Virus record (IMG/VR): IMGVR_UViG_3300019487_000029
Span: 1 to 64,000 of that record
Strand: one strand, 5' to 3'
Source of the DNA: a virus
DNA: 64,000 nt
Shown here one piece after another: positions 29,802 through 63,612 of this stretch. The position numbers and the translations under genes are program-made. The notes under the pieces are model-generated. The model did not search any database. It saw only the letters and a program-made list of their open reading frames with translations, and was not told the DNA's origin. Position 1 is the stretch's first letter. Each line of letters begins with the position of its first letter.

Positions 29802-30208
29802 GGGGCCGTAATGGTCTCGACTGTGATCTTTGACTGTGGAGAGCATGTAGGAGTTGGTCAGATGGCTCCTTAAAAATCAGACCAAAAATCAAATGCTAAT
29901 CGTCTTGCACAATTGGCCTCTCTCGATTTCTCGTTCGAAATGAACGAAGCCGAGACCGAACTGGCTGTGGCTTAATCGCCCCCACTCGGAGATAAGGAAG
30001 AGATTCTCGCTATTGACCTTATCGGAGCTTGCAGCGAGGAAGACCCGTCAATGTCCTAATGTTGGCACTGTTGATTGACCAGTTGTCAGTCTATATCGGC
30101 GACTTTTAGTTTGTTTATATTGCCGAAAGAAACTCAAACAGACTAAACATGTAGTGCTTCTCAGAATAAGGCCATAGGACAGGGGTTCAACTCCCCTCGG
30201 CTCCACCA
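29802..30208 (+). ncRNA. ssrA: tmRNA (one-piece)
   Basis: 407 nt. The 5' end GGGGCCGTAATGGTCTCGAC pairs with the 3' end CGGCTCC, followed by ACCA; the T-arm is GGGGTTCAACTCCCC. The tag frame starts at GCT 29895 and ends at TAA 29973-29975, encoding 26 residues that begin ANRLAQLASL and end ETELAVA. An ending in small hydrophobic residues is the usual ClpXP degron form. It rescues stalled ribosomes with a phage-specific tag. The tag is long compared with the common 8-15 residues. No SmpB gene is seen in this window. Confidence 0.93.
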
Positions 30209-48541: not shown

Positions 48542-48615
48542 GCCAGATTGATGTAATAGTAGCCTAACGCTCTCATAAGGCGAATGCACTGGGGCAGAAC
48601 CAGTATCTGGCACCA
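48542..48615 (+). tRNA. tRNA-Met (CAT), elbow variant
   Basis: Acceptor GCCAGAT/ATCTGGC, discriminator A, encoded CCA; anticodon loop CTCATAA; T-stem ACTGG/CCAGT with loop GGCAGAA in place of TTCRAnn; D-loop AATAGTA (A18, G19). CAT could also be Ile2 if lysidine-modified. Confidence 0.85.
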
Positions 48616-49187: not shown

Positions 49188-49261
49188 GCCGCATTAGTAT
49201 AAAAGCATTACACGGCTTTGGTAAAGCTGAGACGACGGGGCAGTACCGTCATGTGGCTCCA
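49188..49261 (+). tRNA. tRNA-Thr (GGT), elbow variant
   Basis: Acceptor GCCGCAT/ATGTGGC, T CCA; stem CGGCT/AGCTG, loop TTGGTAA; T-arm GACGG-GGCAGTA-CCGTC; D-loop AAAAGCA. Confidence 0.87.
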
Positions 49262-51837: not shown

Positions 51838-51914
51838 GGGATGCAAGCTCTAATAGTGGTAAGCTACCGGCTTTTAACCGGAAGGACACGGGGCAGTACC
51901 GTGGCGTCCTACCA
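51838..51914 (+). tRNA. tRNA-Lys (TTT), elbow variant
   Basis: Acceptor GGGATGC/GCGTCCT, A CCA; stem CCGG/CCGG, loop CTTTTAA; T-arm CACGG-GGCAGTA-CCGTG. D-loop longer (AATAGTGGTA). Confidence 0.85.
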
Positions 51915-52310: not shown

Positions 52311-52381
52311 GCGGGGTGCCAGCAGCACAGTAGAGTCTCCAAAACTCAGCTTGGTCGGGGCAGCACCGACTCCGCTTGCCA
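52309..52381 (+). tRNA. tRNA-Trp (CCA), elbow variant
   Basis: Acceptor AGGCGGG/TCCGCTT, G73, CCA; stem GAGT/ACTC, loop CTCCAAA; T-arm GTCGG-GGCAGCA-CCGAC; reduced D-loop with AGCA. Confidence 0.82.
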
Positions 52382-52977: not shown

Positions 52978-53478
52978 ATGACAATACTTCGAGAATGCAA
53001 CCAATGTGGTAATAGTTTAACTAAACGGTGGCAAACGAAATTTTGCTCTTCAGAATGTTCTGCTACCTATAACAATTTACATCATAAAACTGGCAGATTC
53101 AAACATGGAATGTTTACAAAAAAATTGTGTAAAGAATGTGGCAATGAAACAAAAAACCGAAAATACTGTTCGTCTGAGTGTGCGAATAAAGGAAGAAAAA
53201 AAGAATGGGAGCAGAAACTCCAAACCGGAAAAATCACTTATTCATACACAAATGGACAAGTTCGAAAATGGTTGTTAAACAACAGAGAACATAAATGTGA
53301 AAGTTGTCATCTTACAGATTGGTTGGATAAACCAATAAATTTGACAATGGAACATAAAGATGGGAATGCTTGCAATAACATTCCTGAAAATTTAATGCTT
53401 TTGTGTTGGAATTGTCATAGTATGACGTTGACGTTTGGCCGTAAAAACATAAATGGCACACGACATTACAGAAAATAA
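52978..53478 (+). CDS. HNH homing endonuclease (type D)
   Basis: 166 residues. Several zinc pairs (CNQCG, CSSEC, CKECG), then CESCHLTDWLDKPINLTMEH followed by KDGNACNNIPENLMLLCWNC, the HNH core shared with 54406 and 61390. ATG is 6 nt after ATATTTAT. Confidence 0.9.
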   Translation: MTILRECNQCGNSLTKRWQTKFCSSECSATYNNLHHKTGRFKHGMFTKKLCKECGNETKNRKYCSSECANKGRKKEWEQKLQTGKITYSYTNGQVRKWLLNNREHKCESCHLTDWLDKPINLTMEHKDGNACNNIPENLMLLCWNCHSMTLTFGRKNINGTRHYRK

Positions 53479-54129: not shown

Positions 54130-54235
54130 AGCTAGTAGGTAAGTAAGCCCCGGAAGGGGACACTAGGAGCGAAACTCTGCTTAGACCCCCGTGTGAACGG
54201 TGTGGGAGGCTACCTTCGGTATCTAATTTGAGATA
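54130..54235 (+). ncRNA. Structured RNA
   Basis: Nested helices: TAGGT/ACCTT-side pairing, TAAGC/GCTTA, CCCC-ggaa-GGGG, GAG-cgaa-CTC. No CCA or ORF. Followed by alternative GTATCT/AGATAC and GAGATAC/GGTATCTC pairings. Confidence 0.4.
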
Positions 54236-54293
54236 CTAACAGCAACCAAAAAACTTGTTTATTCAACAAACCAAAAAATGGTATCTCGCTTTT

Positions 54294-54368
54294 GGGCATA
54301 TAAAGTAAGAGGAACCTACCTGTCTGTCACACAGGAGTTCGTGAGTGCGATTCTCCGTATGCCCGCCA
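54294..54368 (+). tRNA. tRNA-Asp (GTC), elbow variant
   Basis: Acceptor GGGCATA/TATGCCC, G73 (Asp identity), CCA; stem CCTGT/ACAGG, loop CTGTCAC; T-loop TGCGATT with a bulged T in the stem (CG-T-GAG/CTCCG); D-loop AAGAGGA. Confidence 0.88.
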
Positions 54369-54405
54369 ATTTGAACTTGACATGTTTTTCCATTTATACG
54401 ATAAT

Positions 54406-54858
54406 GTGAAAATGATATATCAGGTTGTCTGTCCATATTGTAAAAATGAGTTTGCGTGTCCTAAAAATAAGGATACTAGATTCTGTTCAAAACGATGTTG
54501 GGGAAATTTTCAAGTCGAAGCTCGTCTCATTAAAAACTCTATCTATGATAAATCCATTCGTGGATGGTGTTATAGACATCTTGAACAAAAATGTTATGAA
54601 TGTGGTCAAAGTACTCAATGGAATAATAAACCATTGAGATTACAAGTAAACCACAGAAATGGCAATACTCGTGACAATCGCCGCAGTAACTTGGGAATGA
54701 TTTGCCCAAATTGCCACACTCAAACAGAAAATTGGGGTGTAAAGAATGCATCAGAAAAAGGAAAGCTGAAAATGGTTGAGGGAGCAGCACTGATGCGGAA
54801 ATCAAATTTGGGGTCGAGGAAGAACAGCAGACTCGCCTGCCTGTCACGCAGGAGATAG
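54406..54858 (+). CDS. HNH homing endonuclease (type D)
   Basis: About 150 residues from GTG 54406 (ATG 54412 also possible). CPYCKNEFACPKNKDTRFCS knuckle, then CYECGQSTQWNNKPLRLQVN and MICPNCHTQT. Its last ~16 codons run into the following tRNA-Asp (54810), so the C-terminus is shared sequence. Confidence 0.88.
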   Translation: MKMIYQVVCPYCKNEFACPKNKDTRFCSKRCWGNFQVEARLIKNSIYDKSIRGWCYRHLEQKCYECGQSTQWNNKPLRLQVNHRNGNTRDNRRSNLGMICPNCHTQTENWGVKNASEKGKLKMVEGAALMRKSNLGSRKNSRLACLSRRR

Positions 54859-54885
54859 CGGGGGCAGCACCCGTCGATCCCGCCA
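54810..54885 (+). tRNA. tRNA-Asp (GTC), elbow variant, second
   Basis: Acceptor GGGGTCG/CGATCCC, G73, CCA; stem CCTGC/GCAGG, loop CTGTCAC; T-arm GCGGG-GGCAGCA-CCCGT; D-loop AACAGCA but a weak D-stem. Overlaps the HNH gene end. Confidence 0.82.
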
Positions 54886-54887
54886 TT

Positions 54888-54961
54888 CGTCATATAACTC
54901 AATAGTAGAGCAGCCGCCCGATAAGCGGAAGACCGTGGAGCGTAACCACGTATGACGACCA
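54888..54961 (+). tRNA. tRNA-Ile (GAT), elbow variant
   Basis: Acceptor CGTCATA/TATGACG, A CCA; stem CCGC/GCGG, loop CCGATAA (C33 instead of U33); T-arm CGTGG-AGCGTAA-CCACG; D-loop AATAGTA. Starts 2 nt after tRNA-Asp. Confidence 0.83.
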
Positions 54962-55123: not shown

Positions 55124-55199
55124 TCCCGTTTCAAGTATAAAAGTAGTACGCATGGCTTTGAACCATGAGGCGGTGGGGCAGTACCATCAACGGGAGCCA
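55124..55199 (+). tRNA. tRNA-Gln (TTG), elbow variant
   Basis: Acceptor TCCCGTT/AACGGGA, G73, CCA; stem CATGG/CCATG, loop CTTTGAA; T-arm GGTGG-GGCAGTA-CCATC; D-loop AAAAGTA; 4-nt acceptor/D linker. Confidence 0.85.
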
Positions 55200-55337
55200 A
55201 TTTACGGGGGTGTCGGAGCAGCGGAGTTCTAAGAACCATTCATGAGTGGAGTATCTGACGTTGAAGCTGTGCCTATTCCCCATCTTAATTTCTGTCTCAT
55301 ATACAATAGGAAGACGGTGTGTTGATCCTTCGCATGT

Positions 55338-56401: not shown

Positions 56402-56761
56402 ATGGAAAAGATTATACAAAAAGAATGCGAATATCATGGAGTAACGGATTATATCCTTGAAGGAAGAGGAACCCATCGGTGCCGCAAATGCCGAAGTGAA
56501 CGAGTAAGTCGATGGAGAAAAAATAATAAGGAAAGGTTGGTTGCGGAATTTGGGGGAGCGTGTAAAATTTGTGGTTACAACAAATGTGTGGGAAATATGG
56601 TGTTCCATCATATGGACCCAATGCAAAAGGGGTTTTCAATTGCAGAAAAAGGAAACACCATTTCGTATGAGCGATTAAAAAAAGAAGCTCAAAAATGCAC
56701 TTTACTTTGTTGTCGCTGTCATGGAGAAGTTCATGCAGGTTTGACCTTTATTCCAGTGTGA
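56402..56761 (+). CDS. HNH homing endonuclease (type C)
   Basis: 119 residues. CRKCRSERVSRWRKNNKERL, then GGACKICGYNKCVGNMVFHH and CTLLCCRCHGEVHAGL. The last 10 nt of the gene, including the TGA stop, form the 5' end of the next tRNA-Asn. Confidence 0.9.
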   Translation: MEKIIQKECEYHGVTDYILEGRGTHRCRKCRSERVSRWRKNNKERLVAEFGGACKICGYNKCVGNMVFHHMDPMQKGFSIAEKGNTISYERLKKEAQKCTLLCCRCHGEVHAGLTFIPV

Positions 56762-57543: not shown

Positions 57544-58218
57544 ATGAAACGAAAAAATGGATTTACGTTGATCGAACTGTTGGTAGTGATTGCTATCATT
57601 GCAATCCTTGCCGCCATGTTACTGCCCGCTTTGTCAAAGGCAAAGGGGTCTGCACAAAAGATTCAATGTGTGAACAACATCCGTCAACTCGGAATGTCTG
57701 CAAAGATGTATGCCGATGAAAACGATGACAAGTTCATGCCTCGCTTGGGTGGAGCACAGAACTTTTGGCCAGCACAGTTGAGCAATTACATTGCTACGCC
57801 TACGTTTTTGCGTTGTCCGTCCGATGTTTCAAAACCAGCTACGTTTGGGGCGGGTGATCCAAATGCATACATTTCGGCACCACGAAGTTTCATCTTCAAT
57901 GGATTCAACGACTATTTCAAAAAAGACCTGACCGACAATTCTCCGCTTCCGCAAGGGGCTGAGATGCCAGAGTCCGCAATTCAACAGAGTAGCGAAACCA
58001 TTCTCTTCGGAGAAAAGGAATCAAACTCTGGTCACTATTGGATGGACTATTGGCAAGGCGATGACTACCGAGAAGTAGAACAGGTTCGTCACAACGGTAG
58101 TTCAAACTATGCGTTTGATGACGGTAGTGCTAGGAGTCTCCGATTCGGCGAATCTTTCATACCAGTCAATCTCTGGTTCGTCAAAGAAGAATGGAGAAAC
58201 TTGGGTGCTGCATTTTAA
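57544..58218 (+). CDS. Pilin-like protein with prepilin and H-X9-DG motifs
   Basis: 224 residues from ATG 57544 (an upstream in-frame ATG at 57490 lies inside the previous gene). [20 protein letters not shown] is a class III prepilin signal with the conserved Glu5; the C-terminal [14 protein letters not shown] fits H-X9-DG. This pair is abundant in Verrucomicrobia, Lentisphaerae and Planctomycetes and rare elsewhere, so the gene was probably acquired from such a host. It might decorate the virion or interfere with host pseudopili. Confidence 0.92.
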
Positions 58219-58635: not shown

Positions 58636-59202
58636 ATGTCAAAACAAAGTCAAAGAGTCATTGATTGGAGACGCAGAACCAAAGAACGTATAATTCAAGC
58701 ATTTGGAGGTTCCTGTGGAATTTGTGGCTATAACAAATGCCAACGGTCGTTAGACATTCATCATCTTAACCCTTTGCAGAAAGAGTTTTCGTTGGCAAGT
58801 ATTCGGGCTTGGCCAAAAGCATGGACATCAATTGTAGTTGAGTTACGTAAGTGTGTGTTGCTTTGTAAAAATTGTCACGGAGAAGTTCATGATAATGTAA
58901 CACAGATTCCTTTTAGCATATCAAAATTTGATGAATCATTTTCCGATTACAAAACGCTTCGATCTCTTGACAAAAAAAGCAAAACAACTAAAAATTGCCC
59001 TGTTTGTAAAGCCGAAATGTTTGCAGCGTCAAAGACATGTTCCAAATCCTGTGCAGCAACCTTGTCGTGGTCAATAGATTGGGATAAAATTGACTTATAT
59101 GATTTGATTGTCAATCAAAAGAAATCTCAATATTCAGTTGCAAAAATGTTAGGATGTTCACCCGCAGCGGTGTGGAAGCGTATAAAAAAGTTAATTCCAT
59201 AG
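58636..59202 (+). CDS. HNH homing endonuclease (type C, long)
   Basis: 188 residues. GGSCGICGYNKCQRSLDIHH and CVLLCKNCHGEVHDNV give the HNH core; a second zinc ribbon (CPVCKAEMFAASKTCSKSC) and a C-terminal helix-turn-helix (YSVAKMLGCSPAAVWKRIKK) provide DNA binding. ATG is 4 nt after TATTTAT. Its TAG overlaps the next tRNA-Asn. Confidence 0.92.
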   Translation: MSKQSQRVIDWRRRTKERIIQAFGGSCGICGYNKCQRSLDIHHLNPLQKEFSLASIRAWPKAWTSIVVELRKCVLLCKNCHGEVHDNVTQIPFSISKFDESFSDYKTLRSLDKKSKTTKNCPVCKAEMFAASKTCSKSCAATLSWSIDWDKIDLYDLIVNQKKSQYSVAKMLGCSPAAVWKRIKKLIP

Positions 59203-59675: not shown

Positions 59676-59753
59676 CCCGCTTGAGCTAGTGCGGTCATTC
59701 AGCACTCGCCTGAAGAGCGAGACAACTCGGTTCGACTCCGAGAGGCGGGACCA
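59676..59753 (+). tRNA. tRNA-Phe (GAA)
   Basis: Acceptor CCCGCTT/AGGCGGG, A CCA; stem CTCGC/GCGAG, loop CTGAAGA; canonical T-loop. Confidence 0.9.
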
Positions 59754-60223: not shown

Positions 60224-60347
60224 AAGATGCGGACAGCGAACCAAATGCTATGAAGAACCCTGTGTCGGTGTGTTCGAATCCACCCTCCACGACCAATACC
60301 GTGGGGTAGCTCAGTGGTAGAGCAGGGGTATGCAAAAAACGCATCTT
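60224..60347 (+). tRNA. Circularly permuted tRNA, probably Phe (GAA)
   Basis: Order: closing strand AAGATGCG; 3' half with anticodon-stem strand ACCCT (60257-60261), T-arm GGTG-t-G/TTCGAAT/CCACC, acceptor 3' strand CTCCACG, A CCA (60293-60295); 4 nt; 5' half with acceptor CGTGGGG (60300-60306), TA, D-arm GCTC-AGTGGTA-GAGC, A, stem GGGGT; closing strand CGCATCTT. The acceptor (7 bp) and anticodon stem (5 bp) pair only in permuted order. Loop nucleotides 60250-60256 give GAA. Confidence 0.75.
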
Positions 60348-60352
60348 GTTTT

Positions 60353-60473
60353 TGTGTTGATAAATATAGGAACTAAATGCGGTTCGATTCCGCTTAATCT
60401 CTGGAGAGCGTGTGGGTGCGACTCCCACTTTAAGGAAAAGCATCCGGCGTGGTTCAAATCCATGTATTAACAC
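60353..60473 (+). ncRNA. RNA with three T-arm-like hairpins
   Basis: Closing stem GTGTTGATA/TATTAACAC (9 bp with one G-T). Inside: GCGG-TTCGATT-CCGC, GTGGG-TGCGACT-CCCAC and CGTGG-TTCAAAT-CCATG. No anticodon arm or CCA. Confidence 0.55.
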
Positions 60474-60651: not shown

Positions 60652-60784
60652 TAGATACGGACAGCAAGAAAAACTCTTATGTCAAACCGCTAATGTGGGT
60701 GAAAATCCCGCCTGAGCCGCCAGATGGCTCGGTCGTCTAATTTAGGACAGCGGTCCCGAAAGGGAAGAAAAAAACCGTATCTAG
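60652..60784 (+). tRNA. Circularly permuted tRNA-Asp (GTC)
   Basis: Closing stem TAGATACGG/CCGTATCTA (9 bp). 3' half: loop ATGTCAA with GTC at 60681-60683, stem strand ACCGC, T-arm GTGGG-TGAAAAT-CCCGC, acceptor CTGAGCC, G73, CCA (60720-60722). After GAT: 5' half with acceptor GGCTCGG (60726-60732), TC, D-arm GTCT-AATTTA-GGAC, A, stem strand GCGGT (60750-60754), then a CCCGAAAGGG hairpin. All helices pair fully only in permuted order; G73 and GTC agree with Asp. Confidence 0.82.
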
Positions 60785-60790
60785 TTTTTT

Positions 60791-61334: not shown

Positions 61335-61374
61335 ATGGAAGACGTGTAAGATTCGTATGTTTTCACGTCTTCCA
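61335..61374. repeat. 12-bp perfect inverted repeat
   Basis: ATGGAAGACGTG and CACGTCTTCCAT separated by ~16 bp, before the HNH gene at 61390. Confidence 0.7.
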
Positions 61375-61389
61375 TTACTATGTATGTTC

Positions 61390-61896
61390 ATGCGAACTGA
61401 TGGAAAAATCTATAAGGACATTGACAATTTCAAGAAAATTGTATCGGAATCTTTTAGTATTCGAGATGTTTACACAAAACTCGGCTACAAAGAATCGGGT
61501 GGTATTTACAAATATATCCGAATTGCAATACAAAAACTTGAACTAGACACGTCACACTTTACAGGATCATTGTGGAGTAAAGGTAAGACGGCAAAATCAG
61601 ATGATCGAGTGGCAGCGGCAGCAAAGCGTCAACGACTTCCATTCACTCTCATATTTTGTAAAGATTCCACATATCGTGGACACAATCAAAATCTTTTGAA
61701 ACGTCTAGTAAATGAAGGATTGAAAACGTATCATTGTGAAGAATGTGGTATTTCTGAATGGCAATCAAAACCACTTACATTACATCTTGACCATATTGAT
61801 GGTGATAATGTGAACAATTCACTTGACAATTTGAGGATATTATGTCCAAATTGTCACACTCAAACTCCAACATTTTCGATTGGATTGAGAAAATAA
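61390..61896 (+). CDS. HNH homing endonuclease (type D)
   Basis: 168 residues from ATG 61390 (MRTDGKIYKDI). An N-terminal segment typical of phage HNH enzymes (FKKIVSESFSIRDVYTKLGY), then CEECGISEWQSKPLTLHLDH and IDGDNVNNSLDNLRILCPNC. Matches 52978 and 54406. Confidence 0.92.
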   Translation: MRTDGKIYKDIDNFKKIVSESFSIRDVYTKLGYKESGGIYKYIRIAIQKLELDTSHFTGSLWSKGKTAKSDDRVAAAAKRQRLPFTLIFCKDSTYRGHNQNLLKRLVNEGLKTYHCEECGISEWQSKPLTLHLDHIDGDNVNNSLDNLRILCPNCHTQTPTFSIGLRK

Positions 61897-63304: not shown

Positions 63305-63460
63305 TGGAATAGGAACGTCAGAGATAGACATCCCGTCGATAGTTTATGTGGTAAAACGTCGCTTTCACAGCGAAGAAGCGGTATTCAAGCTCCGCAAGAC
63401 CTTGTGTGGATGGAACTCAAAGTCGCAGACGTGCGACCCCGTGGAATCCTCTGATGGAGA
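63305..63460 (+). ncRNA. tRNA-derived region
   Basis: D-arm GTTT/AAAC, anticodon-like hairpin TCGC-TTTCACA-GCGA (would read TCA), GCGG/CCGC T-arm-like hairpin, then GTCGCA-gacg-TGCGAC. No matching acceptor or CCA; probably decayed or non-decoding. Confidence 0.4.
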
Positions 63461-63462
63461 TA

Positions 63463-63546
63463 GACGGTAATGCTAGTATGTGGGTTCGAATCCCACCTTC
63501 CCCACCATTTACGGGGAAGTCAGCATAAATGGCTAATGCTCGGCAC
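63463..63546 (+). tRNA. Probable third circularly permuted tRNA
   Basis: T-arm GTGGG-TTCGAAT-CCCAC, acceptor CTTCCCC, A CCA (63505-63507), TTTAC, then acceptor GGGGAAG (perfect 7-bp match), TC, D-arm AGCA/TGCT with GG. Anticodon-stem strands ATGCT and GGCAC pair at four of five positions; loop ACGGTAA suggests GGT. No closing stem seen. Confidence 0.6.
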
Positions 63547-63584
63547 GCTGGAACACGATTGAAATCCTCCCCTACTCTATTTTC

Positions 63585-63612
63585 TTGACAAAATGGAAAT
63601 CCAAGGTAGAAT
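63585..63612 (+). promoter_or_regulatory. Sigma70-like promoter, leaderless arrangement
   Basis: TTGACA, 16-nt spacer, TAGAAT; ATG 63619 follows after 6 nt (GGAG overlaps). Confidence 0.8.

What the first reader, a model, noticed from the sequence alone, without database searches (positions are those of the whole stretch)
60652..60784. Circularly permuted tRNA-Asp gene
Seen: anticodon loop (GTC), T-arm, 3' acceptor, G73 and CCA lie upstream of the 5' acceptor, D-arm and 5' anticodon-stem strand, with only GAT between. The acceptor (7 bp) and anticodon stem GCGGT/ACCGC (5 bp) pair fully only in permuted order, and an outer 9-bp helix brackets the gene. D-loop AATTTA with T-loop TGAAAAT would give U18-G55 and U19-A56, another compensated elbow. 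Known: permuted tRNA genes are described from some algae and archaea, where a splicing endonuclease restores them. I know of none in a phage; maturation in bacteria would need another route or yield a nicked tRNA.
Basis: partly seen in the sequence, partly recalled or inferred. Interest (0 to 1): 0.95.

Follow-up and report, generated by a model that had tools for sequence, protein, structure and literature searches.

The report
Phage RNA wearing a permuted tRNA
A phage RNA gene really does contain a tRNA with its two halves in swapped order, but comparison with related phages suggests the tRNA part is an exchangeable mimic carried on a conserved RNA stem rather than a working tRNA for making protein.

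Summary
At 60652-60783 a 7-bp acceptor stem, G73, CCA, T arm, D arm and 5-bp anticodon stem pair perfectly only in permuted order, inside a 9-bp outer helix. None of 300 shuffles matched it. A second copy of the same design sits at 60224-60347, and a short copy without a tRNA part at 54230-54287. Homologues occur in at least four other virus contigs; 18 of 33 base pairs change on both sides.

The interpretation as a tRNA-Asp gene is unlikely. The non-tRNA part is the conserved part (97% identical in the orthologue, against 62% for the tRNA part). One homologue keeps that part and has lost the acceptor stem and CCA. In four E2-type members the supposed anticodon pairs with the leader. The array already has two ordinary tRNA-Asp(GUC) sequences. 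No bulge-helix-bulge motif and no RtcB gene were found.

Best reading: a phage noncoding RNA family built like bacterial Y RNA YrlA, a stem plus a permuted tRNA-like module. It is not a YrlA member by the tests made: below the Rfam threshold, without the core motif of Ro60-linked phage YrlAs, and with no Ro60 gene on these fragmentary contigs. Binding partner and function are inferred, not shown.

The parts
60652..60783 (+). Whole element E2 (the finding): conserved scaffold enclosing a permuted tRNA-like module
60652..60660 (+). Outer helix, 5' strand TAGATACGG
   Evidence: exact complement at 60775-60783; 8 of 9 pairs change on both sides in homologues
60661..60685 (+). Conserved leader ACAGCAAGAAAAACTCTTATGTCAA; UGUC 60680-60683 (with the supposed anticodon) is predicted to pair with GACA 60660-60663
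   Evidence: 37 of 38 bases identical to L012 over the 5' scaffold; pairing probability about 0.7-0.98
60686..60690 (+). Anticodon-stem 3' strand ACCGC
   Evidence: pairs with 60750-60754
60695..60711 (+). T arm GTGGG TGAAAAT CCCGC
   Evidence: 100% of cells paired in homologues
60712..60725 (+). Acceptor 3' strand CTGAGCC, G73, CCA, spacer GAT
60726..60732 (+). Acceptor 5' strand GGCTCGG
   Evidence: 7 of 7 pairs; replaced by compensated sequence in other members
60735..60748 (+). D arm GTCT AATTTA GGAC
60750..60754 (+). Anticodon-stem 5' strand GCGGT
60755..60774 (+). GNRA hairpin CCC-GAAA-GGG followed by A-rich strand
   Evidence: hairpin also predicted in L012, L046a, L046b and L228 with different stem or loop letters
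60775..60783 (+). Outer helix, 3' strand CCGTATCTA
60224..60347 (+). E1: second member of the same family; outer helix AAGATGCG/CGCATCTT, acceptor CGTGGGG/CTCCACG, A73, CCA, spacer ATAC; GAA triplet
   Evidence: homologue L012:3784-3910
54230..54287 (+). Short member without any tRNA module: GAGATAC...ACAGCAACCAAAAAAC...GGTATCTC
   Evidence: 36.2 bits with R1
54294..54368 (+). Ordinary tRNA-Asp (CTGTCAC loop, G73 CCA)
   Evidence: Rfam tRNA 39.5 bits
54812..54888 (+). Second ordinary-order tRNA-Asp-like sequence (CTGTCAC loop, G73 CCA; unusual T loop; not called by ARAGORN)

Best explanation
The element is a member of a family of phage structured noncoding RNAs, called Type A here. A conserved scaffold (outer helix, ACAGC plus A-rich strands, in some members a GNRA hairpin) carries an exchangeable tRNA-like module in circularly permuted order. 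Shown: permuted pairing, covariation, conserved scaffold with diverging module, members without acceptor stem or without any module, and paralogues in one array. Inferred: the RNA is cut out of the tRNA-array transcript by the processing of its neighbours; the module presents a tRNA elbow and acceptor to a tRNA-binding host or phage protein while the scaffold binds another partner, as YrlA tethers Ro60 to PNPase. RNase P may cut at CCA-GAT|GGCTCGG and expose the CCA end in members that have it. It is a mimic or tether, not a decoding tRNA.
For: Scaffold 97% identical in the L012 orthologue against 62% for the tRNA part. Homologue L046:3903-4013 keeps the scaffold (92-95% identical, compensated outer pair) with no acceptor stem or CCA. 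Short members with no tRNA part in the window, L018 contig and G014. Covariation 18/33 pairs, 0/500 shuffles. UGUC pairs with the leader in four members, P mostly 0.6-0.98. Ordinary tRNA-Asp and tRNA-Phe in the same array. Same architecture as YrlAs beside phage Ro60 genes.
Against: All seven full-length members have U33 and a purine at 37 in one consistent register, and six of seven triplets go with the usual discriminator (Asp/G73, Phe/A73, GUU/G73), a residue of true tRNA identity. CCA is retained in those seven. The triplet is not sequestered in E1, L012E1 and L046b. The acceptor-less homologue is one sequence and could be decaying, although its scaffold is intact. No binding partner is known.
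Confidence: 0.6

Rival explanations
1. A genuine circularly permuted tRNA-Asp gene: the ends at the anticodon loop are cut and ligated, RNase P and a 3' nuclease remove GAT, and a functional tRNA results. The conserved flanks would be the splicing signal or a small ribozyme.
For: Perfect permuted cloverleaf, U33, G73, CCA; the rejoined sequence is called tRNA-Asp; triplet and discriminator agree in 6 of 7 members; spacers (2-8 nt) lie in the range known for permuted genes (1-74, PMC3978253).
Against: A homologue lacks the acceptor stem. Scaffold more conserved than the 'exons'. No bulge-helix-bulge at the junction. Anticodon stem mismatched in L018, L228 and L046b. No RtcB in these contigs (fragments). 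Ordinary tRNA-Asp present.
Confidence: 0.17
2. A diverged Ro60-binding Y RNA (YrlA proper), with the Ro60 gene elsewhere in a phage genome of which this contig is a fragment.
For: Rfam YrlA hits E1 (31.4 bits, E 0.0023); same architecture; long and short paralogues together, as with yrlA and yrlB.
Against: Below the gathering score 69; E2 not hit. A model of Ro60-adjacent phage YrlAs (R2) finds held-out YrlAs at up to 109.6 bits but not E2, and only the tRNA part of E1 at 28.9. No TROVE in any Type-A contig, including the 353-kb contig of a weaker candidate. No convincing Type-A RNA in 50 TROVE-bearing contigs.
Confidence: 0.1
3. A tRNA decoy against a host defence nuclease or tRNA-modifying enzyme, the scaffold serving only stability.
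For: Fast exchange of the tRNA module with conserved fold; location in a phage tRNA array.
Against: The scaffold, not the tRNA part, is the most conserved; short members carry no decoy.
Confidence: 0.1
4. Chance or assembly artefact, or two ordinary tRNA halves side by side.
For: Tandem tRNA junctions can score up to about 44 bits with the family model.
Against: 0 of 300 shuffles; the same element in independent contigs with compensatory changes.
Confidence: 0.01

Closest known systems
YrlA, bacterial and phage Y RNA with tRNA-like domain (RF02553)
   Same: Permuted tRNA-like module (T arm, acceptor, D arm) closed by a stem of the RNA's 5' and 3' ends; forms with and without the module
   Different: YrlAs beside phage Ro60 genes share GTTACTTC and TTGTTCC core motifs, and those modelled have a short acceptor stem without CCA; Type A has ACAGC/A-rich strands, usually a 7-bp acceptor with CCA, and no linked Ro60 found
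Circularly permuted tRNA genes of algae and archaea
   Same: 3' half upstream of 5' half, short spacer, complete cloverleaf in permuted order
   Different: No bulge-helix-bulge; conserved outer scaffold; homologue without acceptor stem; phage of bacteria
Permuted (two-piece) tmRNA (RF04321)
   Same: CCA-bearing 3' part upstream of 5' part, joined by a short linker
   Different: E2 is about 132 nt with no room for tag frame and pseudoknots; not matched by the Rfam model; the window has a one-piece tmRNA at 29802-30208

Membership tests
Circularly permuted tRNA gene | 3' half precedes 5' half and the cloverleaf pairs only in permuted order | tested here: met
Circularly permuted tRNA gene | Bulge-helix-bulge motif at the junction | tested here: not met
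   Predicted fold has a GNRA hairpin on one side and a leader hairpin on the other (by inspection)
Circularly permuted tRNA gene | Homologues keep a complete tRNA body | tested here: not met
   L046:3903-4013 lacks the acceptor stem and CCA
Circularly permuted tRNA gene | Mature joined tRNA or circular intermediate | not testable with these tools
   needs RNA from infected cells
YrlA (RF02553) | Rfam gathering score (69 bits) | tested here: not met
   E1 31.4 bits, E2 no match
YrlA (RF02553) | Permuted tRNA-like module on a terminal stem | tested here: met
YrlA (RF02553) | Core motif of Ro60-linked phage YrlAs (GTTACTTC / TTGTTCC) | tested here: not met
   R2 does not find E2; E1 only over the tRNA part
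YrlA (RF02553) | Linked Ro60 (TROVE) gene | tested here: inconclusive
   none in Type-A contigs, but these are fragments
Permuted tmRNA (RF04321) | Tag reading frame and Rfam match | tested here: not met
   no RF04321 match at E2; tag frame not searched separately

The most novel reading that the evidence does not exclude
The phage makes real permuted tRNAs that mature by an unknown bacterial route: either the conserved scaffold is a small self-cleaving or guide RNA that lets a ligase close the anticodon loop, or the RNA works as a nicked two-piece tRNA, processed by RNase P and charged at its CCA end, like a minimal two-piece tmRNA.
Probability: 0.15. Interest if true: 0.92.

Novelty: new variant of a known kind. 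Interest (0 to 1): 0.6.

Why it matters
It would be a second family, besides Ro60-linked YrlA, in which a permuted tRNA domain is mounted on a separate RNA stem, and here the tRNA module is swapped while the scaffold is kept. That makes testable what the tRNA mimic recruits during phage infection, and shows that permuted tRNA order alone is not evidence of a permuted tRNA gene.

Tried and rejected
Two ordinary tRNA halves side by side: rejected by the homologues. Group II intron hit on E2: E 2.1, rejected. ARAGORN tRNA-Asp(atc) at 60308-60401: artefact that uses the 5' half of E1. Host genome origin: no match to the E2 pattern in genome contigs. E2-like sequence in INPHARED phages: none. Broad pattern ACAGCRA..ATGAAGAAC: chance matches only among the loci examined. 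Pattern hits L361 and L362: chance, no tRNA, no model match. R1 hits of up to about 47 bits in TROVE-bearing contigs: those checked are YrlAs. The 1274-aa window protein gave no relatives.

Full report
Observation. A scanner for permuted tRNAs gives 21 of 21 possible pairs, the best in the window, and none of 300 dinucleotide shuffles of the array reached this score. The predicted fold (-49.3 kcal/mol, z -5.5) contains the permuted cloverleaf, the 9-bp outer helix, a GNRA hairpin (CCC-GAAA-GGG) and a leader hairpin in which GACA pairs with UGUC, the stretch holding the supposed anticodon (pairing probability about 0.7-0.98).

It is not alone. The same design occurs at 60224-60347 (E1: Phe-like GAA triplet, A73, CCA), and a 58-nt version without any tRNA module at 54230-54287. 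Searching IMG/VR with a neighbouring DUF4031 protein and with DNA patterns gave homologues in the contigs behind L012 (32 kb), L046 (22.5 kb), L018 (116 kb) and L228 (52 kb). L012 carries both E1 and E2, E2 lying between tRNA-Thr-like and tRNA-Lys neighbours as in the window. Weaker candidates lie in G022 and G027, without CCA. In IMG/VR the E2 outer sequence with a tRNA module was otherwise seen only in L012, L046 and L228.

Evolution. Between the window and L012 the scaffold is 97% identical and the tRNA part 62%; the acceptor changes from GGCTCGG/CTGAGCC to GGCGAGG/CCTCGCC with pairing kept. On the alignment of eight long members (A1) 18 of 33 pairs change on both sides (shuffles 9.7 +- 1.8, 0 of 500), and 89.3% of cells pair against at most 47.5% for slid structures. 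The decisive homologue is L046:3903-4013: its scaffold is 92-95% identical, with a compensated outer pair and GNRA loop GCAA for GAAA, yet its T arm and D arm are joined by a few bases, with no acceptor stem and no CCA. Such an RNA cannot be aminoacylated. Selection therefore keeps the scaffold, and the tRNA module is optional and exchangeable.

Why not a tRNA-Asp gene. Ordinary-order tRNA-Asp sequences with the usual CTGTCAC loop and G73 lie at 54294-54368 (Rfam 39.5 bits) and about 54812-54888, and ARAGORN calls an ordinary tRNA-Phe at 59676. No bulge-helix-bulge surrounds the junction; permuted genes of algae and archaea are matured through that motif and a circular intermediate (PMC3978253). 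RtcB was not found in these contigs. In L018, L228 and L046b the two anticodon-stem strands do not pair fully in the register needed. In fairness, rejoined halves are called as tRNAs in most cases, U33 is present in every full-length member, and triplet and discriminator base agree in six of seven, so the modules clearly derive from real tRNAs and a tRNA function is not excluded.

Relation to YrlA. Rfam's YrlA model hits E1 below threshold (31.4 bits, gathering score 69) and not E2; weak YrlA matches also ring in genomes such as E. coli, so a low score means little. To test membership I collected 64 IMG/VR contigs with Ro60 (TROVE) genes, found permuted tRNA-like RNAs beside the gene, aligned 12 and built model R2. 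Their shared core is GGCGTAG-N-GTTACTTC ... TCGNTTGTTCC, with short, loop-closed acceptor stems. R2 finds held-out YrlAs at up to 109.6 bits, but not E2, and on E1 only the tRNA part at 28.9 bits. R1, the Type-A model, finds no convincing Type-A RNA in 50 Ro60-bearing contigs. No TROVE gene was found in the window's contig or in the contigs of L012, L018, L046 and L228, nor in those of the weaker candidates; all are fragments. Type A thus works like YrlA in anatomy but is not shown to be one. Phage Ro60 and YrlA themselves are known (PMC7765460, PMC7824862; [quoted passage not shown]

Most likely mechanism. E2 lies between processed tRNAs, so neighbouring cuts would release an RNA of about 140 nt ending in a short U run (inferred). 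RNase P may cut before GGCTCGG, giving a two-piece RNA with a free CCA end (inferred). The tRNA elbow and acceptor would then recruit a tRNA-binding protein, and the ACAGC/A-rich stem another partner (inferred). Binding partners and function remain open.

Noticed in passing
window 63440-63590; L012:7270-7460; L046:4630-4800: A second RNA family (Type B) with a permuted tRNA module: conserved flanks GTGAAATCCTCTGAAGGAGATAGAC and GGAACA..GTGAAATCCTC around GGGGAAG/CTTCCCC (window), GGGGAGG/CTTCCCC without CCA (L012), GGGCGAG/CTTGCCC (L046)..
   Followed up: partly
window 48560-48610, 49220-49260, 51850-51910, 52320-52380, 54812-54888, 55150-55200: Several ordinary-order tRNAs share an unusual T loop (GGCAGTA, GGCAGAA, GGCAGCA or similar); their D loops appear to lack the usual GG (read by eye).
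   Followed up: no
window 57544-58218: A prepilin-like protein (Pfam N_methyl, 39.8 bits) inside the phage tRNA array, perhaps a captured host gene.
   Followed up: partly
window 52978-53478, 54382-54858, 56402-56761, 58636-59202, 61357-61896: HNH or HNH-like endonuclease reading frames between the tRNAs; the PHROG match is strong at 61357, Pfam matches are weak at 52978 and 54382, the others judged by eye.
   Followed up: partly
L334 3240-3970: Several Y-RNA-like repeats (GCGTAGAT..GATACTTC) lie in tandem just upstream of a phage Ro60 gene.
   Followed up: partly
downstream of the outer helix in most Type-A members, e.g. window 60785-60790: A short run of T follows the outer 3' strand (AGTTTTTT, TTGTTTTT); meaning unknown.
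   Followed up: no
window 54133-54229: An unassigned, probably structured stretch just before the short Type-A member; its GGTATCT could pair with the AGATAC of that member as an alternative helix.
   Followed up: no
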